Part shown: in pieces, positions 1-64,000 of the stretch
Layout: every line of letters starts with the position of its first letter
Numbering within the stretch: the stretch's first letter is position 1
NCBI RefSeq assembly: GCF_032464895.1
Contig: NZ_JAWDIC010000004.1
Location: 124,001-188,000 of the forward strand
Direction of reading: 5' to 3'
DNA: 64,000 nucleotides
From: Phycicoccus sp. M110.8
GTDB lineage: Bacteria; Actinomycetota; Actinomycetes; Actinomycetales; Dermatophilaceae
The notes under the pieces: generated by a model
The model's database searches: none
Told to the model about the DNA's origin: nothing
Seen by the model: only the letters and a program-made list of their open reading frames with translations
Program-made: the position numbers and the translations under genes

Positions 1-165
1 CTTGCCCTGGACATAGGTGATGGGGCCGCGGCTGTCCGCGCCCGAGGACGCAGCGCTGTTGCCGCCGCCACTGCTCCCACCACCACACGCCGCGGCGACG
101 AGCGCCACGGACGCGGCTCCGGCCAGCACCGTGAGGGTGCGCCGTGTGTGCATTCGGAGGGCCAT
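1..165 (-). CDS. Substrate-binding lipoprotein, N-terminal part only (runs off the left edge)
   Basis: Only the first 55 codons are in the window. They show a classic lipoprotein leader: a charged start with RR, a hydrophobic stretch VLAGAASVALVAAA, then the lipobox Cys at residue 27, and a Gly/Ser-rich linker. The mature part opens with GPITYVQGK, which resembles the first strand of extracellular sugar-binding proteins. ATG at 165 is preceded by GGAGG at a good distance; an internal ATG (153) lacks such a site. LacI-type operators lie directly upstream, which fits a carbohydrate ABC transporter. The exact substrate cannot be read from this fragment. Confidence 0.6.
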   Translation of the reverse strand, partial: MALRMHTRRTLTVLAGAASVALVAAACGGGSSGGGNSAASSGADSRGPITYVQGK

Positions 166-209
166 GTGCCCGCCTCCATTTCTCGCGTCGTGCTGAGGCG
201 GACACGCCC

Positions 210-301
210 CCTCAGCGCTGAGGTGAACCGACCCCATGTAAACGTTTACGCCCGCGCCTCGCAATCGTTGCGCGTATTCCTTCGGGTAACGATTGCGTAA
301 C
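210..301 (-). promoter_or_regulatory. Cluster of LacI-type operator palindromes upstream of the lipoprotein gene
   Basis: Three elements lie in the 194-bp gap in front of the lipoprotein gene. GTAAACGTTTAC at 238-249 is a perfect 12-bp palindrome with the AAACGTTT core typical of LacI-family operators. CGCAATCGTT at 260-269 recurs in inverted orientation at 289-298, forming a second, spaced inverted repeat. CCTCAGCGCTGAGG at 210-223 is a further perfect 14-bp palindrome in the presumed 5' leader. The arrangement suggests repression by one or more LacI-family proteins encoded outside the window. The operator at 45048-45060 differs, so the LacI protein in this window is probably not the regulator here. 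Confidence 0.6.
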
Positions 302-359
302 TCGACCGCAACCGCCAGAGGTGACGCGTGTCACATCGCGCCGCGCGGGCAGCGAGGGC

Positions 360-1358
360 TCAGCCGACGGTGCGGGGCACCCGCTGCACGACGGTGACCG
401 GCAGCTTCGCGCAGGACTCCGGCAGGGTCCCGGCCTCGTGCCGCTGCACCTGCACGACCCACGCGCGCCCGTCCCGGTGCCGGACGGCATACCGGCCCTG
501 CACGGTCTCTGCGCCCTCGTCCACCGGCTCGGTGACCAGCGCGCCAAGGTCGGTGACGGCGTGCTCGGCGCGGACGTGGGACTCCGCAGCCATGGCGTCG
601 GGGGCGAGGCTGCTGCGGCCGCGGTCGTGCCGGGGACCGAGCGCCGCGGCCGGGAGCCGGCCGTGGTCCGCCTCGTCGAGGACGGTGGTGGCCAGCGCGG
701 TGTCCAGCCGGGCGAGGGTCGCGCCGTGGGGCAGCAGGACGCCCGTCGGCGCGAAGCGGTGGCCGCCGGTGTGCGAGGCCTCCCACACGCGCCCCGGGCG
801 GGCGGCGGCGGCCTCGACCGCGACCGGCCGGCCGCGCACCGCGCAGCAGACGTCGCGCCGCCCGTTCGTGCACACGAGCAGCACGGGCTCGGCGGGCACT
901 GCACCCGGGAGCGACGCCACGACGGCGTCGCGGTCACCGCGGGCCAGCGCGTCGAGGTCGACCGAGAGCAGGGTGGCCGGGTCCTCGACCGTGGCCCGGA
1001 GCAGCCAGGCGTCGGGACCGCTCCAGGCGAGGTATGCCGTGTGCCCGCCGCCGTGGTGCTCGTCGGCGTGCCGCCCGGGGCGGCGCAGCAGCGAGAGCCG
1101 GCCCCCGCGGTCGCTGCAGGCCGAGGACAGCCGCGCCCCGAGGTCGGCCGGCAGGTGCGACTGCGTCGCGGCGTCGCGCCCCCAGGGACCGGACTGCTCG
1201 AGGGCGACGAAGAAGCCGGCCCGCGCCGCCGTGCCGTAGGCGCTCACGTCCGCCCGGTCGAACCCCACCGAGCAGGCGTCCGGCGCCGGGTGGCCGTGGC
1301 CGGCCGACGGTGCGGTTCGGGCGGTCTCGCCGGGCGAGCCGCCGGGGGAGTCGCTCAC
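360..1358 (-). CDS. Sucrase/ferredoxin-like (Apd1/Aim32-type) thioredoxin-fold [2Fe-2S] protein
   Basis: Predicted 332-residue cytoplasmic protein of the Suc_Fer-like family. It contains [16 protein letters not shown] followed by the segment [18 protein letters not shown]. The Cys-x8-Cys and His-x3-His spacing matches the ligand set known for the Apd1 branch of the family, where two Cys and two His hold a [2Fe-2S] cluster; a further CSDRGG motif lies upstream. A redox or electron-transfer role is therefore likely, but no substrate is known. The GTG start at 1358 overlaps the parC stop (GTGA), so the two genes are probably translationally coupled. A longer reading frame upstream lacks a plausible start and overlaps parC. 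Confidence 0.8.
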
Positions 1359-3802
1359 CGGGGCGGGCTCGCGATGCGGGCGATCGGGCTGGCGGCCGGG
1401 GTGCCGGAGCCGTCGCGGCGGCCCGTGGCCTCGGGCAGCTCGATCGCGACGCCGTTGGCGGCAGCCGCCCGCGCCGGGGTCTCGCCGGCCCACGCGAGGA
1501 CGAGGGTGTCCTCGCCCTTGAGGAACCGGTGGCAGCGCACCCCGCCGGTGGCGCGGCCCTTGGGCGGGTACTCGGCATACGGGGTCACCTTGAGCGACCC
1601 GGGCTCGGTGCCGGGCAGCGCGCCCGAGGAGCCGGAGGAGGTGGCGACCACGGCGTCGGCGCCCGGCGCCACGGCGCCGAAGAAGGCGACCTTGGCCCCG
1701 GCGGCGAGCTTGATGCCGGCCATGCCCCCCGCCGCGCGGCCCTGCGGGCGCACCGCCGTGGCGCTGAAGCGCAGGAGCTGCGCGTCGGTCGTGATGAACA
1801 CGAGGTCGACGTCGTCGGACGTCAGGCCGACCGCGCCGACGACCTCGTCGCCGTCCTTGAGCGAGATGAGCTCGAAGTCGGTGCGGCCGGGGTAGTCGGT
1901 CGTGACGCGCTTGACAACGCCCTGCGCGGTGCCGAGCGCGACGCCCGCGCCGTCGGTGCCGAGCGACACGATCGTGAGCGGCTCCTCACCGGCGGGCAGG
2001 TCGACGTACGCGGCGAGCGGGGCGCCGCCGGAGAGGTTGGGGGAGCCGTTGGTGGGTGGCAGGGTCGGCAGCTCGAGGGCGGACAGGCGGATCATCCGGC
2101 CGCGCGAGGTGACCAGGCCGACCTCGCCGCGGGCGGTCGTGCGCACCGCGCCCACGACGACGTCGTGCTTGCTGCGGCCGCCGTCGGTGGGGATGGGGTC
2201 GGCGGTCGTCGTGCGTGCCATGAGGCCGGTCGAGGAGAGCAGCACCCAGCACGGGTCGTCGGCGACCTCCAGCGGCGAGGTCGCGGTCGCCGGCACGCCG
2301 GCCGACTCGAGCAGCACCGTCCGGCGGGGCGTGCCGTGCGCCTTGGCGACCTCGGCGAGCTCGGAGGACACGAGCTTGGTGAGCAGGGCCTCGTCGCCGA
2401 GGATCGCCTCCAGCTCCTCGATGAGCCGCTCGAGCTCGGTCTTCTCGTTCTCCAGCTCGATGCGGGAGAACTTGGTCAGGCGGCGCAGCTGCAGGTCGAG
2501 GATGTAGTTGGCCTGGACCTCGGTGAGGTCGAAGACCTCCATGAGGCGGCCGCGCGCGATCGCGGAGTCGTCCGAGGAGCGGATGACCTGGATGACCTCG
2601 TCGATGTCGAGGATCGCGATGAGCAGGCCCTCGACGAGGTGCAGGCGGTCCTTGTTCTTGCCGAGCCGGAACTCGGTGCGACGGCGGACGACCTGCATCC
2701 GGAAGTCGACGAAGACCCGCAGCAGGTCCTTCAGGCCAAGCGTGCGCGGCTGGCCGTCGACGAGCGCCACGTTGTTGATGGGGAACGAGTCCTCCATCGG
2801 CGTCAGCTTGTAGAGCTGCTCGAGCACCGCGTCGGGGTTGAAGCCGTTCTTGACCTCGATGACCAGCCGCAGTCCGTGCTTGCGGTCGGTGAGGTCCTTG
2901 ACGTCGGCGATGCCCTGCAGCCGCTTGGACTGGACGTTGTCCTTGATCTTCTCGATGACCTTCTCGGGGCCGACGAGGTAGGGCAGCTCGGTGACGACGA
3001 TGCCCTGGCGGCGGGGAGTGACCTTCTCGACCCGGGCGGTCGCGCGGGTGCGGAACGAGCCCTTGCCGGAGAGGTAGGCGTCGCGGATGCCGTCGAGCCC
3101 GACGATCCGCCCGCCCTGGGGCAGGTCGGGGCCGGGGACGAACTTCATGAGGTCGTCGAGGGAGCAGGACGGGTGGGTGAGCAGGTGCCGGGCCGCGCCG
3201 ATGACCTCGACGAGGTTGTGCGGCGGCATGTTCGTCGCGAAGCCGACCGCGATGCCGCTCACGCCGTTGACGAGCAGGTTCGGGTAGGCCGCCGGCATGA
3301 CGTCCGGCTGCATGAGCTGGTCGTCGTAGTTGGGGACGAAGTCGACGGTGTCCTCGTGCAGGCTGCCGGTCATGAGCAGGGCCGCCGGGGCGGGGCGGGC
3401 CTCGGTGTACCGGGACGCGGCCGGGCCGTCGTCGAGCGAGCCGAAGTTGCCGTGCCCGTCGACCAGCGGCAGCCGCATCGTGAACGGCTGGGCCATGCGG
3501 ACCAGCGCGTCGTAGATCGCGGTGTCGCCGTGCGGGTGGTACTTGCCCATGACGTCGCCGACGACCCGCGAGGACTTCACGTGGCCGCGGTCGGGCCGCA
3601 GCCCCATCTCCTGCATCGAGAACAGGATCCGTCGCTGCACCGGCTTGAGGCCGTCGCGGGCGTCGGGCAGCGCCCGGGCCTTGATGACGGAGACGGAGTA
3701 CTCGATGTAGGCGTTCTGCATCTCCTCCGACACGTCGATGTCGGCGATCCGCTCGACAAAGTCGTCGGGCGGGGGCGGGGAGGCAGCGGTCTTGCGGGCC
3801 AT
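1355..3802 (-). CDS. parC: DNA topoisomerase IV subunit A
   Basis: Predicted 815-residue type IIA topoisomerase breakage-reunion subunit. The N-terminal domain carries the quinolone-region motif [17 protein letters not shown] (Thr94, Asp98) and the catalytic tyrosine Tyr132 in [11 protein letters not shown] coiled coil around residues 420-480 and a C-terminal beta-pinwheel follow. The canonical GyrA-box QRRGGKG is absent; only a degenerate [11 protein letters not shown] is seen near residue 690. This favours ParC (decatenation) over GyrA. ParE is not in the window. ATG at 3802 has AGGAG eleven bases upstream; an in-frame GTG at 3823 would include the ribosome-binding site in the gene. The 3' end overlaps the next gene by 4 bp. 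Confidence 0.88.
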
Positions 3803-3851: not shown

Positions 3852-4580
3852 CTACCGGCCGGAGGGCCCCTCGCCCGCCACGCCGGGAGGTGGTGCGGCC
3901 ACCGCGCCGGAGGGGGCCCGCGTCGCGCTGCCGCCGGGCCCGTGGTCGGCTCCGCCACTGAGCCCTTGGTCGGCTCCGCCGAACCTGCCCCAGTGCACGA
4001 CCTCGGCCGGGGGGCGGCGGGCCCGCGTGCGGCTCGACCCGCCGACGCGGCTGCGCTCGTGCCCGATCGCCACCACCCCGACGAGCCGCCGGTTGCCCGG
4101 TATGCCGTGGGCCTGCCGCACCCGCTCGTGTGCCGTGGGCGGCACGCCGAAGAACAGGGCTCCGAGGCCCTCGTCGACGGCCGCGAGCAGCATCGCCATC
4201 GCCGCCATCCCGGTGTCGACGTCCCAGTAGGGGACGGGCCAGCGGGCCGGGTCGCGGTCGGTCCAGCCCTTGTCGGGCTCGGCGTAGCGGTCGAGGTAGG
4301 CGTCGGGGTCGGAGAGGCACAGGACGAGCACGGGCGCCGCCGACACCCCCCGCAGCCAGGCGTCCGGTTCCCCGGACGAGCCGCCGGCGACCGCTGCCCA
4401 GAACGCCTCCCGCTCGTCCTCGGCGGTCAGGACGACGAAGTCCCAGCCCTGGCTGAACCCGGCGCTCGGTGCCCGCTGCGCGGCATACAGGACCGCGTCG
4501 AGGGCGGCGCGCCCCACCGGGCGGCCGGGGTCGAACCGTCGCACCATCCGTCGCCGGCGCAGCACCTCGCGAAGCTCCAC
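3852..4580 (-). CDS. Nitroreductase family protein
   Basis: Predicted 242 residues. The N-terminal part reads LREVLRRRRMVRRFDPGRPV, the usual FMN-phosphate-binding start of nitroreductases. Around residues 33-44 is AAQRAPSAGFSQ, and near residue 140 GLGALFFGVP, both typical of the family. An NAD(P)H-dependent flavin reductase role is inferred; no substrate can be assigned. The last 50-60 residues are Gly/Pro/Ala-rich, unlike the core, and probably disordered. The start is GTG; the gene follows the deacetylase gene by 21 bp on the same strand and precedes parC, suggesting co-transcription. Confidence 0.8.
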   Translation of the reverse strand: MELREVLRRRRMVRRFDPGRPVGRAALDAVLYAAQRAPSAGFSQGWDFVVLTAEDEREAFWAAVAGGSSGEPDAWLRGVSAAPVLVLCLSDPDAYLDRYAEPDKGWTDRDPARWPVPYWDVDTGMAAMAMLLAAVDEGLGALFFGVPPTAHERVRQAHGIPGNRRLVGVVAIGHERSRVGGSSRTRARRPPAEVVHWGRFGGADQGLSGGADHGPGGSATRAPSGAVAAPPPGVAGEGPSGR

Positions 4581-5574: not shown

Positions 5575-6126
5575 ATGACCACGTTGGCCGGGCCGATTCC
5601 CGCGGTGAGCAGTCGGGGAGGGCTGTCGGTGCCTGCGCACGAGTCGGTGGACGTCGAGTCCGCCCTGCGCGAGCTCTACGACGTGCACTACGCCCGGCTC
5701 GCCGGGTGGACGGCCAAGCTGGTCGGCGACCCCGACACCGCCCACGACCTGGCCAGCGAGGCCTTCGTCAAGCTCTACCGGGAGTTCGCCAGGGTGGACG
5801 AGCCGCGGCCCTGGCTCTACACCGTCACCGCGAACCTCGTGCGGGACCACTGGCGCAAGCGCGGTCGTGAGGCCGCGGCATACCAGCGGCACGAGGCGGG
5901 GCGCGACCTCGTCACCCCCGCGCCCGACCACGCCACCACGCTGACGGTGCGCGACGCCGTCCAGGCGCTGCCGGACCGGTTGCGGGTGGTGGTCCTGCTG
6001 CACTACTTCGCCGACCTGCCGGTGGCGACGGTCGCCCGGCAGCTGGAGAAGTCCGAGGGCACCGTGAAGCGAGACCTGTTCGACGCGCGCCAGCGCATGG
6101 CGCAGATGCTGGGAGAGACCCGATGA
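5575..6126 (+). CDS. ECF-type RNA polymerase sigma factor
   Basis: Predicted 183 residues. Sigma region 2 covers about residues 25-90, including DTAHDLASEAFVKLYREF and a promoter-melting segment RPWLYTVTANLVRDHWRK. Region 4 covers about residues 120-175, with ALPDRLRVVVLLHYFADL and a helix-turn-helix ending EGTVKRDLFDARQRM. Regions 1 and 3 are missing, as expected for the extracytoplasmic-function class. ATG at 5575 follows AGAGGGAC. The stop overlaps the start of the next gene (ATGA), implying translational coupling with its membrane partner, which is the likely regulator. The target promoter is unknown. Confidence 0.85.
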   Translation: MTTLAGPIPAVSSRGGLSVPAHESVDVESALRELYDVHYARLAGWTAKLVGDPDTAHDLASEAFVKLYREFARVDEPRPWLYTVTANLVRDHWRKRGREAAAYQRHEAGRDLVTPAPDHATTLTVRDAVQALPDRLRVVVLLHYFADLPVATVARQLEKSEGTVKRDLFDARQRMAQMLGETR

Positions 6127-7598
6127 GCCGCCGCGACCTGACCGACCTGCCCGGGGCCGGCGACCAGCGCGACCCCGTGGAGGAGTTCTTCGCCCGCGAG
6201 CGGGCCGACGTGCGCGACCTGCAGGCGGGGCACGACCACTGGGAGGGCATCGTCCGCGAGGCCCGCCGGCCCGCGCGACGGTCGTGGCTGCCGTATGCCG
6301 CGGCGGCGGCCGTCGCTGCCGTCGTCGCCGCAGGGGCTTGGGCCGGCCTCGTCCACCGGACCGACGACCGCACCTCGCCCGCCACCGCATCGTCCCAGCG
6401 CTCGGTCGAGACGGTGACGCGGACCGTGACGACGACGCCGACGCCGCTGCCCTCGACCTCCTCGCTCCCCGCCCAGGCGACGACCCCCACTCCGGCGGTC
6501 TCGACGGCGACCGGCCCGCTGCCGGTCGCCCAGTCCTTCGGCCTGGTCTCGATGACGAACGCCGGCGGCAACGTCCTCTACGCCCTGGGCTCGGCGACCT
6601 GCCCCGGCGGGAAGCCGTGCACCCAGGTCGTCACGTCGCGCGACGACGGCCGCACGTGGGTGGCGCTCTCCACCTTCACGACGCTGACGACGCCCGCGGC
6701 AGGAAGCACCCCGACAGGTGCCCACCAGCTGGTGGGGATCCGGTTCGCCAGCCCCGACGTGGGTTACGTGTTCGGCAGCACCACCCTGCGGACCCTCGAC
6801 GGGGGGCGGAGCTGGCAGCCGGTCGACGTGGACCGTCGGGTCGTCCTCTCGCTCGAGACCGACGGCGACTGGGTCTGGATGGCCACCGCGCGGTCGTGCA
6901 CCGCGTCGGACACGTCCACCCGGACCGGGTGCACCGACCTCCAGCCCCTGACCGGGAAGGCGGGGGACACCTCGACCACCCCGGTCCGGGCGAACGGCAC
7001 CCCCACCAGCGCCCTCGCCGCGTGGATCACGATGGACGGCCACGACGCGTACCTCAACACCTCCCTCTCCGACCCGGCCCGTCCGGACGTCGCCCGCCCC
7101 GGGCCGCTCGTCCGGCTCTCCGGTCCGGCCGGCGCCCTCGGGGCCGTCGACGGCTGCGACGGCGGCATGTGGGCCTCGGGGGCGGCGGCCGCCCGCGGCA
7201 CCCTGGTCGGGCTGTGCCCGACGAAGGGCAAGCCGGCGGACGAGTGGTCGGTGGTCACCTCGACCGACCGCGGCATGACGTGGACGGCGACGCCGTCGCC
7301 GGGCCTGGGCCGGCCCACGGCACCCGGCACCTGGCTGACCGCCACGGACGCCGACCACCTCGTCGCGGTCACCGGGGGCGCCCCCTCGAGCACCTCCGGC
7401 ACGCCGGCCCCCACGGCCCTGCTCGCCAGCAGCGACGGCGGGCGCACGTGGGGCGACACCGGCCCGGGCCGCGGGGGAGCGCCCGTCTGGGCGGGCGCGG
7501 CGGGCGGTTCGCTGGTGTATGCCGTGGAGGGCGGGCTCGCGTACTGGCAGAGCACCGACGCCGGGCAGCACTTCGCCCGGGTCCCGATGCGGCGCTGA
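6123..7598 (+). CDS. Membrane-anchored Asp-box (BNR) beta-propeller protein coupled to the ECF sigma factor; candidate anti-sigma/sensor
   Basis: Predicted 491 residues in three parts. Residues 1-54 form a short charged, probably cytoplasmic segment. Residues 55-77 form one membrane helix rich in Ala and Val. After a Thr/Pro/Ser linker, a large extracytoplasmic domain (about 120-491) contains several Asp-box motifs: SRDDGRTW, TLDGGRSW, STDRGMTW, SSDGGRTW and a degenerate STDAGQHF. These repeats define sialidase-like beta-propellers but no catalytic sialidase residues are evident. The 4-bp overlap with the sigma gene and the topology suggest an anti-sigma factor, although no HxxxCxxC zinc anti-sigma motif is present. 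Function is inferred from context only. Confidence 0.75.
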   Translation: MSRRDLTDLPGAGDQRDPVEEFFARERADVRDLQAGHDHWEGIVREARRPARRSWLPYAAAAAVAAVVAAGAWAGLVHRTDDRTSPATASSQRSVETVTRTVTTTPTPLPSTSSLPAQATTPTPAVSTATGPLPVAQSFGLVSMTNAGGNVLYALGSATCPGGKPCTQVVTSRDDGRTWVALSTFTTLTTPAAGSTPTGAHQLVGIRFASPDVGYVFGSTTLRTLDGGRSWQPVDVDRRVVLSLETDGDWVWMATARSCTASDTSTRTGCTDLQPLTGKAGDTSTTPVRANGTPTSALAAWITMDGHDAYLNTSLSDPARPDVARPGPLVRLSGPAGALGAVDGCDGGMWASGAAAARGTLVGLCPTKGKPADEWSVVTSTDRGMTWTATPSPGLGRPTAPGTWLTATDADHLVAVTGGAPSSTSGTPAPTALLASSDGGRTWGDTGPGRGGAPVWAGAAGGSLVYAVEGGLAYWQSTDAGQHFARVPMRR

Positions 7599-7637: not shown

Positions 7638-10307
7638 ATGACGCAGGCCGCGGCCCTTCCACCCGGGTACCCGGCGTGGTGGGAGGCCGACGTCGTGCTC
7701 CGCGACGGGTCGGTCGCCCACCTGCGCCCCATCACCCCCGCCGACGCGCCGGCGGTGCACCGGTTCCACGCCGGGCAGTCCGACGAGTCCATCTACATGC
7801 GCTTCTTCGCGCCGCTGCGGCAGCTCAGCGACCGTGACGTCACCCGGTTCACCACGGTCGACTACCACGACCGCGTGGCGCTGGTGGCGACCGTGCGCGG
7901 CGAGATCATCGGCATCGGACGGTACGACCGGATCACGCCGACGAGCGCCGAGGTCGCCTTCAACATCTCGGACCACTTCCAGGGCAAGGGCATCGGGTCG
8001 GTGCTGCTCGAGCACCTCGCCGTCATCGCCTGGGACTCGGGCATCGAGGAGTTCACGGCCGAGGTGCTGCCGCAGAACCGCAAGATGATGTCGGTCTTCG
8101 GCGACGCCGGGTACGAGGTCAGCCGCCGGTTCGAGGACGGCGTCGTCTCCCTGCGGTTCGACATCCAGCCGACCGAGCGGTCCGAGGCCGTCCGGCTCTC
8201 CCGCGAGCACCGGGCCGAGTCGGTGAGCATGCACTCGGTGCTGTTCCCCGACTCGATCGCGGTCGTCGGGGCCAGCCGCCGCACCGACTCCATCGGCCAC
8301 CACATCCTCGCCAACATCCTCGCGGCCGGGTTCCACGGCGCGGTGCACGCGGTCAACCGCGAGGCCATGGAGGTGCTCGGGCTGCCGAGCCACGCCCGTG
8401 TCTCGGAGATCCCGGACGACGTCGACCTGGCCGTCGTCGCCGTCCCGGCCGACGAGGTGCTCGAGGTCGTGGCCGACTGCGCCGAGGCCGGTGTGCGCAC
8501 CCTGCTCGTCGTCAGTGCGGGGTTCGCCGAGGCGGGGCCCGCGGGGGAGGAGCTGCAGGCCGAGCTGCTCACCCGGGCCCGTGCCGCCGGCATGAGGGTC
8601 CTCGGGCCGAACTCCTTCGGCGTCATCAACAACTCCCCGCACGTGCGGCTCAACGCCTCGCTCGCCCCCGAGCTGCCGCCCGCGGGGCGGCTGGGGCTGT
8701 TCGCCCAGAGCGGGGCGCTGGGGATCGCGGTGCTCGCGTCGGCGGCCCGTCGGGGGCTGGGCATCTCGGTCTTCGCCTCGGCCGGCAACCGCGTCGACGT
8801 CTCCGGCAACGACTTCATGCAGTACTGGATCGACGACCAGGACACCGACGTCGTCGGCCTCTACCTCGAGTCGATGGGCAACCCCCGCAAGTTCTCCCGC
8901 ATCGCCCGGCGGCTCGCGCTGACCAAGCCCGTCGTCGTGGTGAAGTCCGGCGTCTCGAGCTACGGCGTCCCGCCCGGCCACCGGGCCCGCACGACCCGGG
9001 TGCGGCCCGAGGCCTTCGACGCGATGCTGCGCCAGGCCGGCGTCATCCGGGTCGAGAACGTGCACCAGATGTTCGACGTCGCCCAGCTGCTGGTCCACCA
9101 GCCGCTCCCCGGCGGCAACCGGGTGGCCGTCGTCGGCAACTCCGACGCGCTCGGTGCCCTCACGGCGGAGGCCTGCGTCAGCTGGGGCCTGGAGGTCACC
9201 CACGGTCCGGTGTCGCTGCCCAGCGACGCCAGGGGCGAGCTGTTCGCGCAGGCGCTCGCGGACGCGTTCGCCGACCCCGACGTCGACAGCGTCCTGACCT
9301 GCTTCATCCCGCCGCTGGTCACCCTCGACGAGGACGTCGCCACGGCCGTGCGTGACGCCGCCCTGCTGTCCGACAAGCCGTGCCTCGCCACGTTCCTCGG
9401 CATGCGCGGCGTGGTCGAGCGCCTCGCCGGCACGACGAGCGACGGGCGCGAGGAGGTGGTCCCGGCATACTCCATGCCCGAGGACGCCGTGCGCGCCCTC
9501 GCCGCCGCGACGAGGTATGCCGCGTGGCGCTCGCGCGACCACGGCGTGCCCGTGCGGCCGGTGGGCATCGACCGGGAGGCGGCCCAGCACCTCGTCGACG
9601 AGGTCCTCGAGCGCGACCCGGAGGGGCGGCGCCTCACGCCGACCGAGGCGGGACAGCTGCTCCAGGCGTACGGCATCGAGATGTGGCAGAGCATCCCCGT
9701 GACGACCGCGGACGAGGCGGTGGCGGCGGCGGAGGCGGTCGGCTACCCCGTCGTGGTGAAGTCGGTCGCGCCGCTGATGCAGCACTCGCCGGGCCTGTCC
9801 GGCATCCGGGTGGACCTGCGCACCGAGGGCCAGCTGCGCGGGGCGTTCGAGGCGCTCAACGAGCTGCTCACGCCCCTGTCGGCGAACGCGTTCGTCGTGC
9901 AGCGCATGGCCGCCCAGCCGGGTATCTCCTGCGTCGTGCGCAGCGAGGAGGACCCCCTCTTCGGACCGGTGGTCTCGTTCAGCATCGCGGGCGCACCCAC
10001 CGAGCTGCTCGGCGACATCGGGCACCGGATCCCGCCGTTGACCGACGTCGACGTCTCCGACCTCATCTCCTCGGTCAAGGCGTCGCCGATGCTGCACGGT
10101 CACCGCGGCGCGGCCCCGGTCCACCGTGCCGCCCTCGCGGACCTCATCGCCCGGGTGTCGGTGCTCGCGGACAACCTCCCCGAGGTGGCGAGCCTGGTCC
10201 TCAACCCCGTCAACGCCCACGCCGGCGGGGTGGAGGTGCTGGGTGCGGAGGTCACCCTGTCACCGATGCCGCGGCGCAAGGACCCGGGCCGGCGCACCCT
10301 CACCTGA
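7638..10307 (+). CDS. Bifunctional GNAT acetyltransferase / NDP-forming acyl-CoA synthetase-like protein
   Basis: Predicted 889 residues. Residues about 20-170 form a GNAT domain (VAFNISDHFQGKGIGSVLLE is the acetyl-CoA-binding P-loop). Residues about 205-330 form a CoA-binding Rossmann domain (SIAVVGASRR, NREAMEVLG). The next 330 residues are succinyl-CoA-ligase-like (LGLFAQSGALG, VGNSDALG), and from about 670 an ATP-grasp module follows (PVVVKSVAPLMQHS). This four-domain content is that of Pat/PatZ-type protein lysine acetyltransferases that control acetyl-CoA synthetases, here with GNAT at the N terminus. The usual SHTGAL histidine context of active acyl-CoA synthetases reads GHRARTTRV, so ligase activity is doubtful. 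Confidence 0.85.
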   Translation: MTQAAALPPGYPAWWEADVVLRDGSVAHLRPITPADAPAVHRFHAGQSDESIYMRFFAPLRQLSDRDVTRFTTVDYHDRVALVATVRGEIIGIGRYDRITPTSAEVAFNISDHFQGKGIGSVLLEHLAVIAWDSGIEEFTAEVLPQNRKMMSVFGDAGYEVSRRFEDGVVSLRFDIQPTERSEAVRLSREHRAESVSMHSVLFPDSIAVVGASRRTDSIGHHILANILAAGFHGAVHAVNREAMEVLGLPSHARVSEIPDDVDLAVVAVPADEVLEVVADCAEAGVRTLLVVSAGFAEAGPAGEELQAELLTRARAAGMRVLGPNSFGVINNSPHVRLNASLAPELPPAGRLGLFAQSGALGIAVLASAARRGLGISVFASAGNRVDVSGNDFMQYWIDDQDTDVVGLYLESMGNPRKFSRIARRLALTKPVVVVKSGVSSYGVPPGHRARTTRVRPEAFDAMLRQAGVIRVENVHQMFDVAQLLVHQPLPGGNRVAVVGNSDALGALTAEACVSWGLEVTHGPVSLPSDARGELFAQALADAFADPDVDSVLTCFIPPLVTLDEDVATAVRDAALLSDKPCLATFLGMRGVVERLAGTTSDGREEVVPAYSMPEDAVRALAAATRYAAWRSRDHGVPVRPVGIDREAAQHLVDEVLERDPEGRRLTPTEAGQLLQAYGIEMWQSIPVTTADEAVAAAEAVGYPVVVKSVAPLMQHSPGLSGIRVDLRTEGQLRGAFEALNELLTPLSANAFVVQRMAAQPGISCVVRSEEDPLFGPVVSFSIAGAPTELLGDIGHRIPPLTDVDVSDLISSVKASPMLHGHRGAAPVHRAALADLIARVSVLADNLPEVASLVLNPVNAHAGGVEVLGAEVTLSPMPRRKDPGRRTLT

Positions 10308-11073: not shown

Positions 11074-12222
11074 ATGCCACACGAGGGTCTGACCCCACCG
11101 CACTACGACGACGCCGGCCTTGCGGCCGTGCTCCCCTCCGTGGCAGCCGCCCTGGGCGTCACGGGGTATGCCGGGCGGGCCCCGATCGAGCTTCCGCCGG
11201 CGCGACGCGCCGTCGTGGTGCTCGTGGACGGCCTGGGCTACGAGCTGGTCCGCCGTAGGGGTGGCCACGCGCCGTACCTGCGCTCGCTGCTGCCGGCCGC
11301 CCACCGGCTCACCGCCGGCTTCCCCTCGACCACGGCCACCTCGATGGGCACCTTCGGCACCGGGGCACCGCCGGGGGTGCACGGGCTGCTCGGCTACGAG
11401 GTGCTCGTGCCCGGCGAGGACCGGCTCGTCAACGAGCTCTCGTGGGAGGACGGCCCCGACCCGCTCGCGTGGCAGCCGATCGAGACGGTGCTCGAGGCCG
11501 CCGACCGCGACGGTGTCTCCGTGACCCGCATCGGGCCGGCGTTCTTCGACGGCTCCGGCCTCACGCGCGCTGCCGTGCGCGGCGGCCGGTTCGTGGCAGC
11601 GAAGTCCCTGGCGGACCGCGTGGACGCCGCCCAGGCGGCCCTGCGGCGCGACGCCCGTTCCCTCGTCTACGTGTACTGGGGCGACCTCGACAAGGTCGGC
11701 CACGTCCACGGCTGCCAGTCCTGGGAGTGGGGCGACGAGCTCGAGGCCATCGACTCGGAGATCTCGCGGCTGGTCGCCGGCGTGCCGCCCGACACGGCCG
11801 TGGTCGTGACCGCCGACCACGGCATGGTCGACGCGCCCCACGCCCTGCGCATCGACCTGGCCCACGACCTCGAGCTCGCGGCGGGCGTGCGGCACGTCGG
11901 CGGTGAGCCACGGGCCCTGCAGCTGTACTGCCAGCCCGGCGCCGCCCGCGACGTCGCGCACGTCTGGCGCGAACGGGTCCAGGAGCGCGCCTGGATCCGC
12001 ACGCGCGACCAGGCCATCGAGGAGGGCTGGTTCGGCCCTGTGGAGGACCGCAACCGTGAGCGCATCGGCGACCTCGTGGTGGCGATGCGCGACAACTTCG
12101 CGATCGTCGACTCGCGCCGTGCCCGGCCACAGCTTCTGGCGCTGCTCGGGCTGCACGGGTCGCTGACACCCGAGGAGTCGGCAGTGCCGCTGTTCCACGT
12201 CCCGGCCCGGGTGACCGCCTAG
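11074..12222 (+). CDS. Alkaline-phosphatase-superfamily phosphodiesterase (nucleotide pyrophosphatase-like)
   Basis: Predicted 382 residues, cytoplasmic. The metal-binding motifs of the superfamily are visible: VVVLVDGLGYEL near residue 48, the nucleophile Thr in GFPSTTATSMGTFGTG, VYVYWGDLDKVGHVHG near residue 195, VVVTADHGMVD near 245 and a further His in VRHVGGEPRALQL. This is the arrangement of nucleotide pyrophosphatase/phosphodiesterases; the substrate is unknown. The start ATG at 11074 follows DUF5998 by 41 bp, and the tdk start follows 11 bp after the stop, so the three genes probably form an operon. Confidence 0.8.
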   Translation: MPHEGLTPPHYDDAGLAAVLPSVAAALGVTGYAGRAPIELPPARRAVVVLVDGLGYELVRRRGGHAPYLRSLLPAAHRLTAGFPSTTATSMGTFGTGAPPGVHGLLGYEVLVPGEDRLVNELSWEDGPDPLAWQPIETVLEAADRDGVSVTRIGPAFFDGSGLTRAAVRGGRFVAAKSLADRVDAAQAALRRDARSLVYVYWGDLDKVGHVHGCQSWEWGDELEAIDSEISRLVAGVPPDTAVVVTADHGMVDAPHALRIDLAHDLELAAGVRHVGGEPRALQLYCQPGAARDVAHVWRERVQERAWIRTRDQAIEEGWFGPVEDRNRERIGDLVVAMRDNFAIVDSRRARPQLLALLGLHGSLTPEESAVPLFHVPARVTA

Positions 12223-52974: not shown

Positions 52975-53829
52975 TCAGGCGAGCACTGCCTCGACGTGAG
53001 TCGAGGACAGCCACGGGTATGCCGCGTGGGCGGGTGCCGCGTCGAAGGTCATGTCAGTCGTGTCCATGGCGAGGGCCGCCTCGGCGAGGCGGGCGAGCTG
53101 CGGTCGTACCGGTCGGGCGAGCACGCGCATCACCCGCAGCGCCGTCCGGGGCACGTGGCGTGGTGCAGTCCCGGGTGCGACCAGCTGGGCGAGCTCGACG
53201 AGGGTCAGCTGGTCGGGGCCGCCGACCTCGATGACCTGTCCCCGGAGGCCCGGGTCCACCGCGGCGCGGACCACGGCAGTGGCCATGTCCGTCACCGACA
53301 CGAAGTTCACCGGGTTCCGGCCCCTGCCGAAGACCTGGACCCGCCCCGCCCGGTTGGCGCTCGATCGCAGGATGTCGCTCCAGGTCTCGACGAACGCGGT
53401 GCCACGCACGATCGTCCACGGCACGCCGCTGGACCTCAGGTACGCCTCCGCAGCGCCCTTCATGCGGTGCAGCTCGACGGGGTGGTCCGGACCGGCGCCG
53501 ACGACCGACACGAGCACGAGGGCCGCCCCCGCAGCGGCTGCGGCATCCACGACGTGGCGGTTGCCGTCGCGGTCGACGGAGGCGGGGGAGGGCTTGCCGG
53601 TACCCGCCAGCCCCTGGGCTGCGCACACGGCGACCGTCGCGCCCTCGACGGCCCGCGCGACGGCCGCCGCGTCACGGATGTCGCCCGGCACGAGCTGGGC
53701 GCCCGCGTCCGCGAGGTCCGTGGCGGAGGCGGCCCCCTTGGCGTACACGCGGACCGTGTTCCCCTCCGCGAGCAGGCGTCGCACCACCTCGCGTCCCAGG
53801 TGGCCGGTGCCGCCGACCACGGTGATCAC
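52975..53829 (-). CDS. NAD(P)-binding NmrA-type oxidoreductase
   Basis: Predicted 284 residues. VITVVGGTGHLGREVVRRLL is the atypical-SDR Rossmann motif; later segments are LVPGDIRDAAAVARAV, LVLVSVVGAGPDHPVE and a C-terminal substrate region. It resembles NmrA/NAD(P)H-quinone-reductase-like proteins with an unknown substrate. The GTG start at 53829 overlaps the stop of the SnoaL-like gene (GTGA). Both are divergent from a TetR regulator. Confidence 0.82.
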   Translation of the reverse strand: MITVVGGTGHLGREVVRRLLAEGNTVRVYAKGAASATDLADAGAQLVPGDIRDAAAVARAVEGATVAVCAAQGLAGTGKPSPASVDRDGNRHVVDAAAAAGAALVLVSVVGAGPDHPVELHRMKGAAEAYLRSSGVPWTIVRGTAFVETWSDILRSSANRAGRVQVFGRGRNPVNFVSVTDMATAVVRAAVDPGLRGQVIEVGGPDQLTLVELAQLVAPGTAPRHVPRTALRVMRVLARPVRPQLARLAEAALAMDTTDMTFDAAPAHAAYPWLSSTHVEAVLA

Positions 53830-57205: not shown

Positions 57206-58419
57206 GCCGCGTCCTCCTTGCCGTAGTCGGCGTGGTTGGGGTTCTCCCAGATCACCGCGCCGCCCATGCCGATGCCGATGCACATCGCGGTCATGCCGTA
57301 GCGCACCTCGGGGTGCTCCTCGAACTGGCGGGCGAGCTGGGTCATCAGCCGCACGCCGGAGGAGGCGAGGGGGTGGCCGGTGGCGATGGCGCCGCCGTAC
57401 TGGTTGACCCGGGGGTCGTCGTCGGCGATGCCGAAGTGGTCGAGGAACGCCAGCACCTGCACGGCGAAGGCCTCGTTGAGCTCGAACAGGCCGATGTCCT
57501 CGATCGACAGGCCGGCCTTGCCCAGCGCCTTCTCGGCGGCCGGCACCGGGCCGATGCCCATGACCTCGGGCTCGACACCCACGAAGGCGAAGTCCACGAG
57601 CCGCATCCGCACCGGCAGGCCGAGCTCCTCGGCGGCCTCGGCGGAGGCCAGGATGCACGCGGTGGCGCCGTCGTTGAGGCCGGCTGCGTTGCCCGCCGTC
57701 ACGTTGCCGTGCGGGCGGAAGGGCGTCTTGAGCTGCGCCAGGTCCTCGACGGTCGTGCCGGGACGCGGCGGCTCGTCCTCGGTGGCCAGCCCCCAGCCGA
57801 GCTCCTCGTGGCGGGTCGCGACCGGCACGAGGTCGGGCTGCACCTGGTTGTTGGCGTAGGCCTTCGCGAGCTTGTCCTGGGAGGCCACGGCATACGCGTC
57901 GCTGCGCTCCTTGGTGAGCTGCGGGAACCGGTCGTGCAGGTTCTCGGCGGTCGAGCCCATGACGAGCGCGGAGGGGTCCACGAGCTTCTCGGCCACGATC
58001 CGCGGGTTGGGGTCGACGCCCTCACCCATCGGGTGGCGGCCCATGTGCTCCACCCCGCCCGCGATGGCGACGTCGATGGCGCCGAAGGCGATCGAGGACG
58101 CCGTGGTGGTCACGGCGGTCATCGCGCCCGCGCACATGCGGTCGATGGAGTAGCCGGGCGTGGTCTTCGGCAGCCCGGACAGCAGCGCGGCCATGCGGCC
58201 GAGGGTGAGGCCCTGGTCGCCGATCTGGGTGGTCGCGGCGATGGCGACCTCCTCCACGCGCTCCGGCGGCAGCTCGGGGTGGCGGCGGATGAGCTCACGG
58301 ATGCATTTGATGACGAGGTCGTCGGCGCGGGTCTGGGCGTAGATGCCCTTCTCCCCGGCCTTGCCGAACGGCGTCCGGACGCCGTCGACGAACACGACCT
58401 CACGCAGAGTGCGGGGCAC
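57202..58419 (-). CDS. fadA: Acetyl-CoA C-acyltransferase (3-ketoacyl-CoA thiolase)
   Basis: Predicted 405 residues. The nucleophilic Cys is in YSIDRMCAGAMTAV near residue 93; GHPLASSGVRLM and CIGIGMGGAVIW complete the active site near residues 360-395. It cleaves 3-ketoacyl-CoA in the last step of beta-oxidation. GTG at 58419 follows AGGAGGCC. It is the first gene of the fadAB pair; a palindrome 61 bp upstream is a candidate operator. Confidence 0.93.
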   Translation of the reverse strand: MPRTLREVVFVDGVRTPFGKAGEKGIYAQTRADDLVIKCIRELIRRHPELPPERVEEVAIAATTQIGDQGLTLGRMAALLSGLPKTTPGYSIDRMCAGAMTAVTTTASSIAFGAIDVAIAGGVEHMGRHPMGEGVDPNPRIVAEKLVDPSALVMGSTAENLHDRFPQLTKERSDAYAVASQDKLAKAYANNQVQPDLVPVATRHEELGWGLATEDEPPRPGTTVEDLAQLKTPFRPHGNVTAGNAAGLNDGATACILASAEAAEELGLPVRMRLVDFAFVGVEPEVMGIGPVPAAEKALGKAGLSIEDIGLFELNEAFAVQVLAFLDHFGIADDDPRVNQYGGAIATGHPLASSGVRLMTQLARQFEEHPEVRYGMTAMCIGIGMGGAVIWENPNHADYGKEDAA

Positions 58420-58479
58420 GAGTGGCCTCCTGTGGAAGGTGGGGGTGACACCGGTATGCCGGTGCGTACCGCTCGATGC

Positions 58480-59834: not shown

Positions 59835-60464
59835 TCAGCGGCGTGGGCCCGGGAGGGCGATGACGCCCTCGGGCAGCGGAGGCAGGCCGGCGATGGTGCA
59901 CAGCAGGTCCGACCACGCGAGCAGGTGTGCCCCCACGTTGCCGGTCACCGGGGTCCACGAGGCGCGCACCTCCATCTCGACGCTGGCCGGCCGGTCGGAC
60001 AGCCCGGCGAAGCTCTCGGACACCACACGCGTGACCGTGCCGGCCTCGGCGGTGTAGCCGACGTGGTGGCTGTCGAGCGCGTCGACGAGCCAGGACCACC
60101 CGACCGCACCGAGCATCGGGTCGGTGGCCAGCTCGGGCTCGAGCTCGGCCCGCGCGAACGTCACCGCACGCCAGGCGCCGTCCCACGGCTCGGGGACCGA
60201 CGGGTCGTGCAGCAGCACGAACCGTCCCGAGGCGAGCTCGTCCTCGTCGGCGGCCGCACCGACCACCTCGGCGGTGAGGGCCACGGCATACGGGGCGATG
60301 CGCTGCGGCGCGGGCACCTCGGTGAGCCGGATCTCGGGGCGCAGGCGCGCTCCACGCAGATCGGCCAACGCCTGCGCGAACTCGGGGGAGTGGTCTCCGG
60401 GGACCGTTCGGCTGCCCACCGTCAGAGCGTATGCCGCGGGGTCGCCTATCACAGGCAACGGCAC
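59835..60464 (-). CDS. DUF3000 family protein
   Basis: Predicted 209 residues at most. The family core runs from FAQALADLRGARLRPEIRL to LPPLPEGVIALPGPRR, with WSWLVDALDSHHVGYTAEAG in the middle. Function unknown. The GTG at 60464 and two further in-frame GTGs (VIGDPAAY and VGSRTVPG) are possible starts. It adjoins rnd and lies close to hemE, an order conserved in many actinobacteria. Confidence 0.75.
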   Translation of the reverse strand: MPLPVIGDPAAYALTVGSRTVPGDHSPEFAQALADLRGARLRPEIRLTEVPAPQRIAPYAVALTAEVVGAAADEDELASGRFVLLHDPSVPEPWDGAWRAVTFARAELEPELATDPMLGAVGWSWLVDALDSHHVGYTAEAGTVTRVVSESFAGLSDRPASVEMEVRASWTPVTGNVGAHLLAWSDLLCTIAGLPPLPEGVIALPGPRR

Positions 60465-62161: not shown

Positions 62162-62261
62162 GGCACCACCGTGCGGCCGGCGCGCAGGCCCCGGAAGGGA
62201 CGGCTGGTCGTGGGAGCGGCAGTCCTACCCAGCGCCGCCCGAGACCGGGGATGCTGGGGGC

Positions 62262-63158
62262 GTGCCGTCCAGCCGTCCCCAGCTCGCCGCCGTCCTGCGC
62301 CGCGCCCGGGAAGCGGTCCGTCCCGAGGACGTCGGCCTCGCGGCGGGGTCGCGCCGCCGGGTGCCCGGCCTGCGCCGTGAGGAGCTCGCGCTCCTGGCCG
62401 GGATCAGCGTGGACTACGTGGTGCGGCTGGAGCAGGGCCGGGGACCGCAGCCGTCGAGCCAGGTGCTGGGCGCGCTCGCGCGGGCCCTGCGCCTGGACGT
62501 GGACGCCCGGGACGAGCTGTTCCGGCTCGCCGGGACGCCTCCTCCGGAGGCGGGGACGATCGACGTGCACGTCCGTCCCTCGGTGCTCCGCCTGATCGAC
62601 CGGTTCACGGACCTGCCGGCGTTCGTGCAGAGCGCCAAGGGCGACGTGCTGGCCTGGAACGCCATGTCGGCGGCGCTGCAGGGGGACTGGTCCGGCCTGC
62701 GGCCCGAGCAGCGCAACCTCGCCCGCCTGCGGTTCCTGCACGACCCCGCAGGCGAGGCGATGACACCCGTGGGCGGTACTCCCGAGGAGCGTGCCGCGAT
62801 CGCGCGCCAGAGCGTGGCCAACCTGCGCAGGGCGGCAGCGCGCTACCCGCGCGACCCCGACCTCCAGCGGCTCCTGCGCGACCTGCGGTCGGGGTCGACG
62901 GAGTTCGCGGCGCTGTGGGAGGACACCACTGCCGGCGCCTGGCGCAGCCACCGGAAGACGCTGCTCCACCCCGCGGTCGGCCCGCTCACCCTCGAGTGCG
63001 ACACGCTGCACGTACCCGACACCGACCAGCTGCTCGTCGTCTACTCGGCGGCGCCGGGGACGCCGGAGGCCGACGCCCTGGCCCTGCTGCGGGTGCTGGG
63101 GACCCAGCAGCTGCAGGAGCGGGCCGGGGCGTCAGGAGGAGGCGCGCGACCGACCTAG
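62262..63158 (+). CDS. XRE-family (MmyB-like) transcriptional regulator
   Basis: Predicted 298 residues. The N-terminal helix-turn-helix is VPGLRREELALLAGISVDY followed by VVRLEQGRGPQPSSQVLGAL. The C-terminal MmyB-like ligand-binding domain has FVQSAKGDVLAWNAMSAAL, WRSHRKTLLHPAVGPLTLE and DQLLVVYSAAPGTP. This class typically controls a neighbouring SDR; the 100-bp gap between them would hold the operator. GTG at 62262 was selected as the start. Confidence 0.83.
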   Translation: MPSSRPQLAAVLRRAREAVRPEDVGLAAGSRRRVPGLRREELALLAGISVDYVVRLEQGRGPQPSSQVLGALARALRLDVDARDELFRLAGTPPPEAGTIDVHVRPSVLRLIDRFTDLPAFVQSAKGDVLAWNAMSAALQGDWSGLRPEQRNLARLRFLHDPAGEAMTPVGGTPEERAAIARQSVANLRRAAARYPRDPDLQRLLRDLRSGSTEFAALWEDTTAGAWRSHRKTLLHPAVGPLTLECDTLHVPDTDQLLVVYSAAPGTPEADALALLRVLGTQQLQERAGASGGGARPT

Positions 63159-63167
63159 GATTGCCGG

Positions 63168-64000
63168 GTGACCTCCCCAGCAGACTCCGTCCTCGTCCGG
63201 GCCGCCCGACGCCAGCCCGTGCCGCACACCCCGGTGTGGTTCATGCGCCAGGCGGGCCGCTCGCTGCCGGAGTACCGCAAGGTCCGCGAGGGCGTCGGGA
63301 TGCTCGAGTCCTGCCGCCGCCCCGACCTCGTCACCGAGATCACCCTGCAGCCGGTCCGCCGTCACGGCGTGGACGCCGCGATCTTCTTCTCCGACATCGT
63401 CGTCCCGCTCGCGGCGGTCGGCGTCGACCTCGACATCGTCGCCGGTGTCGGACCCGTGGTCGCCAAGCCGGTCCGCACCCGCGCAGACCTCGACCGCCTG
63501 CCGGAGCTCACGCCCGACCACGTCCCGTACGTCACCGAGTCCGTCCGGCTGCTGACCGCCGAGCTGGGCGGGACCCCGCTCATCGGGTTCGCCGGCGCGC
63601 CGTTCACCCTCGCCAGCTACCTCGTCGAGGGCGGACCGAGCAAGAACCACGAGCACACCAAGGCGCTCATGTACGGCGACCCGCAGCTGTGGCACGACCT
63701 GTGCGCCCGGCTCGCCCAGATCTCCGGCGCGTTCCTCGACGTGCAGGCCGCCGCCGGCGCCTCCGCGGTCCAGCTGTTCGACTCCTGGGTCGGCGCGCTG
63801 CCCCGGGCCGACTACGAGCGGTTCGTCCAGCCCCACTCGGCGGCGGCGCTCGCCGCGGTGGAGGCACGCGGCATACCGCGCATCCACTTCGGGGTCGGCA
63901 CCGGTGAGCTGCTCGCCTCGATGGGCGCCGCCGGCGCCGACGTCGTGGGCGTCGACTTCCGGGTGTCGCTCACCGACGCGATCGCCCGCCTCGGCGGGTC
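63168..64000 (+). CDS. hemE: Uroporphyrinogen decarboxylase, N-terminal part (runs off the right edge)
   Basis: The frame is open from GTG at 63168 to the window end, 277 codons. [20 protein letters not shown] is the signature for substrate-carboxylate binding, followed by [34 protein letters not shown] and [18 protein letters not shown]. The enzyme makes coproporphyrinogen III, the branch compound for the haem route in which the ferrochelatase at 14.9-16.1 kb acts last. The start lies 9 bp after the regulator's stop. Confidence 0.93.

What the first reader, a model, noticed from the sequence alone, without database searches (positions are those of the whole stretch)
1..64000. Dispersed heptamer GTATGCC/GGCATAC, over-represented in all frames and on both strands
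Reading the window I found about 37 copies of GTATGCC or its complement GGCATAC (e.g. near 487, 1033, 1574, 4102, 4484, 5879, 6293, 7519, 9467, 9517, 11168, 15278, 16404, 20706, 21356, 24231, 24782, 25167, 26845, 31718, 33460, 33559, 34634, 37003, 37467, 42785, 46182, 46506, 48483, 49114, 52412, 53020, 57894, 58454, 60290, 60427, 63872). A hand estimate from roughly 73 percent GC gives about 5-6. Most extend to GTATGCCG. In genes it is read as Tyr-Ala (TAT GCC), Ala-Tyr (GCA TAC) or Gly-Ile (GGC ATA), so it forces the rare TAT, GCA and ATA codons in three frames (ATA in hemH, dxs, hemE, the nitroreductase and the VWA gene); two copies are intergenic (37467, 58454). Codon bias alone cannot explain this. 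It points to a DNA-level function such as a chromosome-organising site, a methylation or recombination signal, or a neighbour-dependent mutational pattern. The copies are split about evenly between strands, so it is not a polar element like KOPS.
Basis: partly seen in the sequence, partly recalled or inferred. Interest (0 to 1): 0.75.

Follow-up and report, generated by a model that had tools for sequence, protein, structure and literature searches.

The report
Uptake-sequence-like motif in an actinobacterial family
A short DNA word, GTATGCCG, is spread evenly through this bacterium's genome and kept in place between species, much as the self-recognition tags of naturally transformable bacteria are, which would be unexpected in a Gram-positive group.

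Summary
It is not codon bias (311 octamers in genes, 20 after synonymous shuffling) and not replication-polar. It is spaced more evenly than any of 140 control words. High-copy congeners keep 78 of 111 aligned sites, against 8 of 90 matched control words. A 57.8-kb transposon holds only 4 copies. In the genomes searched it is confined to one family, Dermatophilaceae, where relatives instead carry GGATGCCG (up to 2,268 copies) or GTACGCCG (up to 1,525). Six genera lacking one Tad-pilus ATPase (tadA-c) lack all three words counted genome-wide; seven further motif-less genera have it. Mobile elements interrupt tadA genes in 4 of 11 own-genus species, the own genome included. Best explanation: a DNA uptake sequence for natural transformation, read by a Tad/Flp competence pilus; such pili are required for transformation in Micrococcus luteus. 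Uptake itself is untested and no receptor was identified. The main rival is a HIP1-like, methylation-linked motif.

The parts
486..492 (-). motif copy
1032..1038 (+). motif copy
1574..1580 (-). motif copy
4100..4106 (+). motif copy, read Gly-Ile (GGC ATA) in a nitroreductase/BluB-like gene (match below the family cut-off)
4482..4488 (-). motif copy
5877..5883 (-). motif copy
6293..6299 (+). motif copy
7517..7523 (+). motif copy
9464..9470 (-). motif copy
9515..9521 (+). motif copy
11166..11172 (+). motif copy
15276..15282 (-). motif copy, read Gly-Ile (GGC ATA)
16402..16408 (+). motif copy
20705..20711 (-). motif copy
21356..21362 (+). motif copy
24230..24236 (+). motif copy
24779..24785 (+). 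motif copy
25166..25172 (-). motif copy
26844..26850 (+). motif copy in the aconitase gene
31717..31723 (-). motif copy
33459..33465 (-). motif copy
33555..33561 (-). motif copy
34632..34638 (+). motif copy, read Gly-Ile (GGC ATA)
37001..37007 (-). motif copy
37465..37471 (+). motif copy, outside called genes
42783..42789 (+). motif copy
46179..46185 (-). motif copy
46506..46512 (+). motif copy
48483..48489 (+). motif copy in dxs
49111..49117 (-). motif copy in dxs, read Gly-Ile (GGC ATA)
52411..52417 (-). motif copy
53017..53023 (+). motif copy
57889..57895 (-). motif copy
58454..58460 (+). motif copy, outside called genes
60285..60291 (-). motif copy
60429..60435 (+). motif copy
63870..63876 (-). 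motif copy, outside called genes (about 130 bases from window end)

Best explanation
GTATGCCGnG is a DNA uptake sequence (DUS/USS-like). Shown: a short asymmetric word, 0.43 copies per kb here (0.09 to 0.66 in the genus), on both strands; enriched in every reading frame and between genes; evenly spaced; kept in place between species; scarce in a large mobile element; with one-letter dialects in related genera; in a genome that carries comEA-comEC and Tad/Flp pilus loci. Inferred: cells are, or recently were, naturally competent; a surface component of the Tad/Flp competence pilus (a minor pilin, or a partner of it) prefers DNA that carries the word; fragments with the word are taken up and recombined more often, so the word spreads and is kept by biased uptake of kin DNA, one copy per fragment being enough (hence the even spacing). 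Dialects arise when the receptor's preference drifts. Mobile elements lack the word, and elements that insert into tadA may switch uptake off and so escape removal by recombination.
For: Abundance: 37 vs 1.6; 1,775 vs 56 reversed control. Codon-independent: 311 vs 20.0 (sd 3.4), each of six frames raised 6- to 25-fold. Gaps under 400 bp between called genes are denser (0.94 vs 0.56 per kb, crude gene calls). Even spacing: var/mean 0.60 in 5-kb bins (Poisson p 1.4e-5) against a mean of 1.14 for 140 control 8-mers, 0 of 140 as even; spacings under 200 bp 6.9% vs 13.0%. In-place conservation: high-copy species keep 78 of 111 aligned sites, NTATNNNN words 8 of 90; in the comEC region alone 49 of 56 against 21-24% for any 8-mer. 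No strand polarity. Transposon: 4 copies in 57.8 kb (0.07/kb) vs 0.61/kb in 824 kb of sample. Family-restricted: in 294 phylum genomes outside the family the most is 117 copies in 7.5 Mb, control 47. Dialects: GGATGCCGnG 2,268, 1,786, 1,477, 980 and 970; GTACGCCGnG 1,525, 1,252, 1,187, 1,162, 1,063 and 1,048; CGTATGCCGCTG and GTATGCG in samples; GAATGCCG 18 vs 1.1 in 22 kb of a named MAG. Two dialects together: G085 657 + 843. Machinery: ComEC in 41 of 41 genomes tested; ComEA with HHH_3 and SLBB domains; Tad loci b and c. tadA-c is absent from all 13 genomes of six genera, none with GTATGCCGnG, GGATGCCGnG or GTACGCCGnG enriched; no positive genus of 37 lacks it throughout; Fisher p 1.1e-4, not corrected for kinship. 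Elements sit inside tadA-b in G000 and G006 and inside tadA-c in G003 and G009. M. luteus needs both of its tad clusters for transformation (PMC4322843, section 8).
Against: No uptake or transformation was measured; no receptor was identified. Seven genera (g9, g10, g11, g62, g64, g66, and g67 by a partial match) have tadA-c but none of the words counted, so the machinery is not sufficient. Single motif-bearing genomes have only weak or partial tadA-c matches (G155 716 copies, G161 510, G118 960): broken or missing. Lesions found do not cleanly separate low-copy species (3 of 4: G006, G007, G009; none found in G010) from high-copy ones (G000 and G003 of 7, or 3 of 7 if the split comEC of G004 is real); the own genome itself has an interrupted tadA-b. 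Evenness is weaker by other measures (10-kb bins p 0.08, 20-kb bins p 0.28, spacing CV p 0.07). Evenness, conservation and dialects would also suit a HIP-like motif. The tadA-c association may reflect few losses on the tree.
Confidence: 0.67

Rival explanations
1. A HIP1-like motif: a word created and kept by an orphan DNA methyltransferase and a linked repair or recognition activity, with no part in uptake. Dialects would follow changes of methyltransferase.
For: HIP1 of cyanobacteria is frequent in many genomes, has alternate forms and tracks methyltransferases (abstract of PMC4390886). I did not survey methyltransferases or methylation.
Against: HIPs are palindromes; this word is asymmetric. 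Six genera without tadA-c all lack the words counted, which a methylation motif would not predict, though kinship may explain it. Dialects differ from GTATGCCG at positions 2, 4, 6 and 7, spread across the word.
Confidence: 0.18
2. A binding site for a chromosome-organising or recombination protein (nucleoid protein, Chi-like or KOPS-like signal).
For: Even spacing, in-place conservation and scarcity in a recent insert would also suit such a site.
Against: No strand bias with GC-skew sign (117/127 and 124/134), unlike Chi or KOPS. Copies fall from 2,841 to 365 inside the own genus and from 2,327 to 6 inside genus g26, hard for an essential chromosome function.
Confidence: 0.09
3. A neighbour-dependent mutational bias, e.g. 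deamination of GTACGCCG to GTATGCCG.
For: In some relatives GTACGCCGnG falls below its reversed control while GTATGCCGnG is high (G149: 11 vs control 58, with 1,148 GTATGCCGnG).
Against: GTACGCCG is not depleted in the own genome (48 vs 33.7 expected; GTACGCCGnG 221 vs control 83). GTATGCCGnG plus GTACGCCGnG is 1,996 in the own genome but 54 (G110) to 320 (G189) in genomes of the motif-less genera and g2, so one-step conversion cannot supply the copies. Even spacing and in-place retention are not expected. GGATGCCG and GAATGCCG dialects need other changes.
Confidence: 0.04
4. Codon-pair or protein-motif bias (Tyr-Ala, Ala-Tyr).
For: 30 of the 37 window copies read Tyr-Ala or Ala-Tyr.
Against: Synonymous-codon shuffles give 20.0 against 311; all six frames and the gaps between genes are enriched. 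The shuffle rests on my cruder gene calls.
Confidence: 0.01

Closest known systems
Neisseriaceae DNA uptake sequence (DUS) and its dialects
   Same: About 10-bp word in hundreds to thousands of copies, closely similar dialects between genera, a genome with two dialects, some relatives with none (PMC3630211, abstract and section 6).
   Different: Different letters; an actinobacterial family; no PilM-type type IV pilus in the 11 own-genus genomes but Tad/Flp loci; uptake not shown.
Pasteurellaceae uptake signal sequence (USS)
   Same: Similar core length (9 bp); competence lost repeatedly while the motif persists (passages of PMC1626085). Similar density and mostly genic location are recalled.
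   Different: Different sequence and host group; the USS has conserved flanking segments, while here only nG is seen beyond the core.
Flp/Tad-pilus-dependent natural transformation of Micrococcus luteus
   Same: An actinobacterium with comEA/comEC and two tad clusters, both required (PMC4322843, section 8). That it belongs to the same order is recalled.
   Different: The term 'uptake sequence' occurs nowhere in that paper nor in a 2026 M. luteus competence paper (PMC12849477); I saw passages and one section, not the whole texts.
Cyanobacterial HIP1
   Same: Highly iterated in many genomes of one group, with alternate forms (abstract of PMC4390886).
   Different: HIP1 is palindromic and tied to methyltransferases; this word is asymmetric.
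Mobile elements that disrupt competence genes (comK, comYC, comFA, comM)
   Same: Large elements inserted inside genes for DNA-uptake pili; two lie at nearly the same place in tadA-c of two species, with a serine recombinase at the junction (passages of PMC4774983).
   Different: The target here is tadA, which is not among the genes named in the passages I saw.

Membership tests
DNA uptake sequence (DUS/USS) | Short word in hundreds to thousands of copies, far above expectation | tested here: met
   1,775 vs 56 control; 11 of 11 own-genus genomes 365-2,841
DNA uptake sequence (DUS/USS) | Both strands, coding and non-coding, codon-independent | tested here: met
DNA uptake sequence (DUS/USS) | Dialects among relatives | tested here: met
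DNA uptake sequence (DUS/USS) | Sites kept by more than protein conservation | tested here: met
   78/111 vs 8/90 in high-copy species; 27/92 vs 8/70 in low-copy species
DNA uptake sequence (DUS/USS) | Scarce in mobile elements | tested here: met
   4 in 57.8 kb of one element where about 35 would be expected; 0 in 15.4 kb of a second, uninformative because its host G006 is a low-copy species. Two elements only
DNA uptake sequence (DUS/USS) | Competence machinery in the genome (ComEC, ComEA, DNA-binding pilus) | tested here: met
   Genes only; in the own genome tadA-b is interrupted
DNA uptake sequence (DUS/USS) | Preferential uptake or transformation by DNA that carries the word | not testable with these tools
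   needs a bench assay; this is the decisive feature
DNA uptake sequence (DUS/USS) | A sequence-preferring receptor (ComP in Neisseria) | not tested
   no receptor candidate singled out
HIP1-like motif | Palindromic | tested here: not met
   GTATGCCGnG is asymmetric
HIP1-like motif | Cognate DNA methyltransferase | not tested
   no methylation data; methyltransferase genes not surveyed
Chi or KOPS | Strand polarity along the replichore | tested here: not met
   117/127 vs 124/134, p = 1.0; replichores approximated by local GC-skew sign, which is small and noisy here

The most novel reading that the evidence does not exclude
Dermatophilaceae run sequence-specific natural transformation: a Tad/Flp competence pilus in a Gram-positive cell recognises a family of 8-10 bp self tags, unrelated in sequence to those of Neisseriaceae and Pasteurellaceae, making this an independent third origin of uptake sequences and the first outside the Gram-negative bacteria, with mobile elements fighting it by inserting into tadA.
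Probability: 0.62. Interest if true: 0.92.

Novelty: new variant of a known kind. Interest (0 to 1): 0.82.

Why it matters
Uptake sequences are known to me only from two Gram-negative families, where they make transformation favour kin DNA. A third, independent case in Gram-positive Actinomycetota would show that self-tagging is not a peculiarity of crossing an outer membrane, would point to a sequence-reading component of Tad/Flp pili, and would give clear predictions: which actinobacteria of this family are transformable, with which DNA tag, and which are barred from exchange by dialect. It would also offer a practical genetic tool.

Tried and rejected
Codon or codon-pair bias: rejected by synonymous shuffles. 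Mutational conversion from one precursor: unlikely. Strand-polar Chi/KOPS signal: no polarity. RNA element: no Rfam match and no tRNA in the window. Type IVa pili as the machine: PilM found in 5 of 41 genomes, none of the 11 of the own genus. A further Tad ATPase class (locus a, T2SSE matches near 1e-62 to 1e-69) is not needed: in the motif-bearing genomes G013, G014, G021, G022 and G032 the best T2SSE match is no better than 6e-51. Whether broken tad/com genes explain motif decay inside the own genus: not clean (3 of 4 low-copy against 2 or 3 of 7 high-copy species). My first gene callers picked some wrong frames; a dicodon caller replaced them, but the frame counts and codon-shuffle test rest on a first one. 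One search stopped with an error in its last loop, on a 606-base contig without G or C, after the results used here were printed; its strand rows were redone. Script searches for direct repeats at the element junctions found none of 10 bases or more and only short chance-like matches; the 5-bp and 9-bp repeats reported are by eye from printed junctions. Dropped before counts: the 5.5-kb and 606-base contigs in the spacing tests; weak genera g2, g20 and g56 in the main Fisher test (p 7.5e-5 if counted as positive). The thresholds for calling a genus positive were set after seeing the counts. Several requested stretches did not exist or were tiny, so G012 and G023 were judged by whole-genome counts only. 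Literature: no paper held all terms for uptake sequences in Actinobacteria/Actinomycetota or for natural transformation in Intrasporangiaceae; a looser search gave 10 papers, none with Actinobacteria in its listing; the literal octamer gave 643 papers, of which the 20 listed are by title not about genome motifs.
Full report
What was checked. 35 of 37 run on to GTATGCCG and 29 of 37 have G two bases later. In 430 kb of the same genome (window included) GTATGCCG occurs 249 times against 11.5 expected, and the only clear further context is nG. Genome-wide, GTATGCCGnG has 1,775 copies against 56 for the reversed control.

Whose genome. The window lies in a 4.1-Mb genome in 7 contigs; the window is 73% GC. 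Searching named genomes with its dxs protein gave Knoellia koreensis (91% identity), two Phycicoccus (89%) and several Terrabacter (83-84%) as nearest; very near records may be left out by that tool. From this I infer the family Dermatophilaceae (Intrasporangiaceae); that GTDB calls this genus Pedococcus is recalled.

Not codons, not polarity, not chance placement. In 506 crudely called genes from 824 kb, 311 octamers were found against 20.0 (sd 3.4) after shuffling synonymous codons within genes, and all six frames are enriched. Gaps under 400 bp between called genes hold 0.94 per kb against 0.56 in genes. Copies on the two strands do not follow the sign of GC skew. Spacing is more even than random: variance/mean 0.60 in 164 bins of 5 kb, Poisson p 1.4e-5. 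140 other 8-mers of similar abundance average 1.14, none as low, and spacings under 200 bp are about half as common (6.9% vs 13.0%; 2 of 140 controls as low). In larger bins and for the raw spacing CV the effect is weaker (10-kb bins p 0.08, 20-kb bins p 0.28, CV p 0.07). Even spacing of USS in Haemophilus is recalled, not looked up.

Kept in place. Aligning the comEC region between the own genome and nine congeners (identity 77-80% over aligned parts), five high-copy species keep 49 of 56 aligned motif sites exactly, where any 8-mer survives in 21-24% and one-letter neighbours of the motif in 4 of 43. Four low-copy species (G006, G007, G009, G010) keep 16 of 44. In the dxs region, K. koreensis keeps 10 of 12, Phycicoccus sp. 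Soil748 2 of 10 and Root101 5 of 9, against 26-33% for any 8-mer. The comEC and tad regions together (tad with G001 as reference, G004 added) give 78 of 111 against 8 of 90 for other NTATNNNN words in high-copy species, and 27 of 92 against 8 of 70 in low-copy ones. Lost sites show many different changes (GTACGCCG, GTAGGCCG, GTATGCAG, GTATGGCG), as expected for decay after upkeep has stopped.

Where it occurs. In 186 genomes of the family GTATGCCGnG ranges from 2 to 2,955 copies. In 294 phylum genomes outside the family the most is 117 copies in 7.5 Mb, control 47. Relatives that lack it often carry a one-letter variant at similar density. GGATGCCGnG: G083 2,268, G084 1,786, G202 1,477, G071 980, G026 970. 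GTACGCCGnG: G069 1,525, G130 1,252, G060 1,187, G033 1,162, G059 1,063, G131 1,048. GTATGCG in G030, CGTATGCCGCTG in G025, and GTATGACG/GTATGGCG beside GTATGCCG in G013 and G014 were seen in samples. GAATGCCG is in a Phycicoccus MAG and GGATGCCG in Humibacillus. G085 and G086 hold two dialects together. By genus I count 37 of 53 with a dialect: 29 with at least one genome of 150 or more GTATGCCGnG and over twice its control, g17 and g74 by GGATGCCGnG, g3, g24, g25, g49 and g65 by GTACGCCGnG (g25 only 435 copies) and g16 by sample. Three are weak (g2, g20, g56) and 13 show none of the three words counted. The other forms were not counted genome-wide, so some of the 13 may hold one of those or an unknown word. 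Inside single genera copy number can collapse: G127 6 against G128 2,327; G151 21 against up to 1,181; G065 13 against 511-627. A shared core, drifting letters and lineages with none is what DUS dialects show in Neisseriaceae (PMC3630211, section 6).

The machinery. All 41 genomes tested have ComEC. In the own genome comEC lies beside a ComEA with SLBB and HHH_3 domains. PilM of type IVa pili was not found in the own genus. Instead there are Tad loci. Locus b, read in G001, has a TadA, a DUF4244 Flp-like pilin, TadE and TadE/G-like proteins (the last two below the Pfam cut-off) and a helicase with an MrfA-type domain; the names CpaE, TadB and TadC for the genes between are by position and recalled gene order. 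Locus c, read in the own genome, has TadA, a T2SSF protein and a TadE protein. In Micrococcus luteus genes of both tad clusters are needed for transformation (PMC4322843, section 8); which of its clusters corresponds to b or c I did not test. Across 186 family genomes tadA-c is missing (paralogue-level matches, best E 3e-17 to 2e-52, or none) from all 13 genomes of six genera, g7, g14, g15, g48, g54 and g63, three of these genomes being under 90% complete; none is enriched in the three words. Fisher p 1.1e-4 for 6 of 13 against 0 of 37 genera, not corrected for kinship. Seven motif-less genera do have tadA-c (g67 by a partial match), and in positive genera g8, g22 and g51 only partial matches were found. 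Motif-bearing G155, G161 and G118 have only weak or partial matches, so motif and intact tadA-c do not go together genome by genome.

Mobile elements inside the machinery. In the own genome tadA-b breaks off at codon 281 and resumes 57.8 kb away. The insert has matching inverted ends starting TGTC, a 5-bp repeat of the target by eye, and TniB and TniQ genes; its 796-aa neighbouring protein matched no Pfam family. I read it as Tn7-like. It holds 4 motif copies where about 35 would be expected from the sample density of 0.61 per kb. In G006 tadA-b is split near codon 262 by another element of about 25 kb, with a 9-bp repeat by eye. In G003 and G009 tadA-c is split by inserts of about 71 and 79 kb: the downstream part starts at codon 230 in both, the upstream part aligns to codon 230 and 210, and a large serine recombinase lies next to the downstream junction in both. 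G007 has a probable frameshift in tadA-b. Further family genomes give only partial tadA-c matches, roughly two dozen by E-value, not checked one by one; some will be contig ends. Mobile elements that insert into competence genes are a known theme (passages of PMC4774983), so this supports, without proving, a role of both tadA genes in uptake.

Judgement. The word behaves like an uptake sequence in the respects that I could test by sequence. The decisive property, preferential uptake, is untested, and a HIP1-like methylation-linked motif is not excluded, because methyltransferases and methylation were not examined. What would be new is the place: a Gram-positive family and Tad/Flp pili. My searches found no report of uptake sequences there; the library holds only part of the literature. 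That uptake sequences are known only from Neisseriaceae and Pasteurellaceae is general knowledge, in line with abstracts listed.

Noticed in passing
G000:C1:2163150-2220998 (L194, L212, L213, L236, L232): A 57.8-kb Tn7-like element (TniB, TniQ; TGTC...GACA ends; 5-bp GCGGC target repeat by eye) sits inside tadA of Tad locus b in the window's own genome.
   Followed up: partly
L244-L247 (G003:C1 about 2353.5-2424.1 kb; G009:C11 about 595.5-674.2 kb): Large serine-recombinase elements interrupt tadA of Tad locus c at nearly the same place in two species; partial tadA-c matches in roughly two dozen more family genomes suggest a recurrent insertion site, not checked one by one.
   Followed up: partly
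G006:C1 about 1774.2-1799.6 kb (L219, L220): An element of about 25 kb splits tadA-b, with a 9-bp repeat at the junctions by eye; it carries an AbiEii-type gene and a pPIWI-associating-nuclease-like gene.
   Followed up: partly
G149, G148, G147 (genus g68), whole genome: GTACGCCGnG is far below its reversed control (11 vs 58, 18 vs 47, 27 vs 51) while GTATGCCGnG is abundant (1,148, 912, 904): near-miss sites seem to be purged or converted in these species.
   Followed up: no
G009 and G010 (own genus), whole genome: GTACGCCGnG is raised (460 and 434, against 88-221 in the other nine own-genus genomes) where GTATGCCGnG has fallen: either decay by TAT to TAC changes or the start of a dialect change.
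   Followed up: no
G004:C1:1517076-1517881: The ComEC domain is found in two separate pieces, possibly a frameshift or a sequencing error.
   Followed up: no
window 37472-42782: The longest motif-free gap of the window (5.3 kb) overlaps its lowest-GC 4-kb block (68%, 40001-44000).
   Followed up: no
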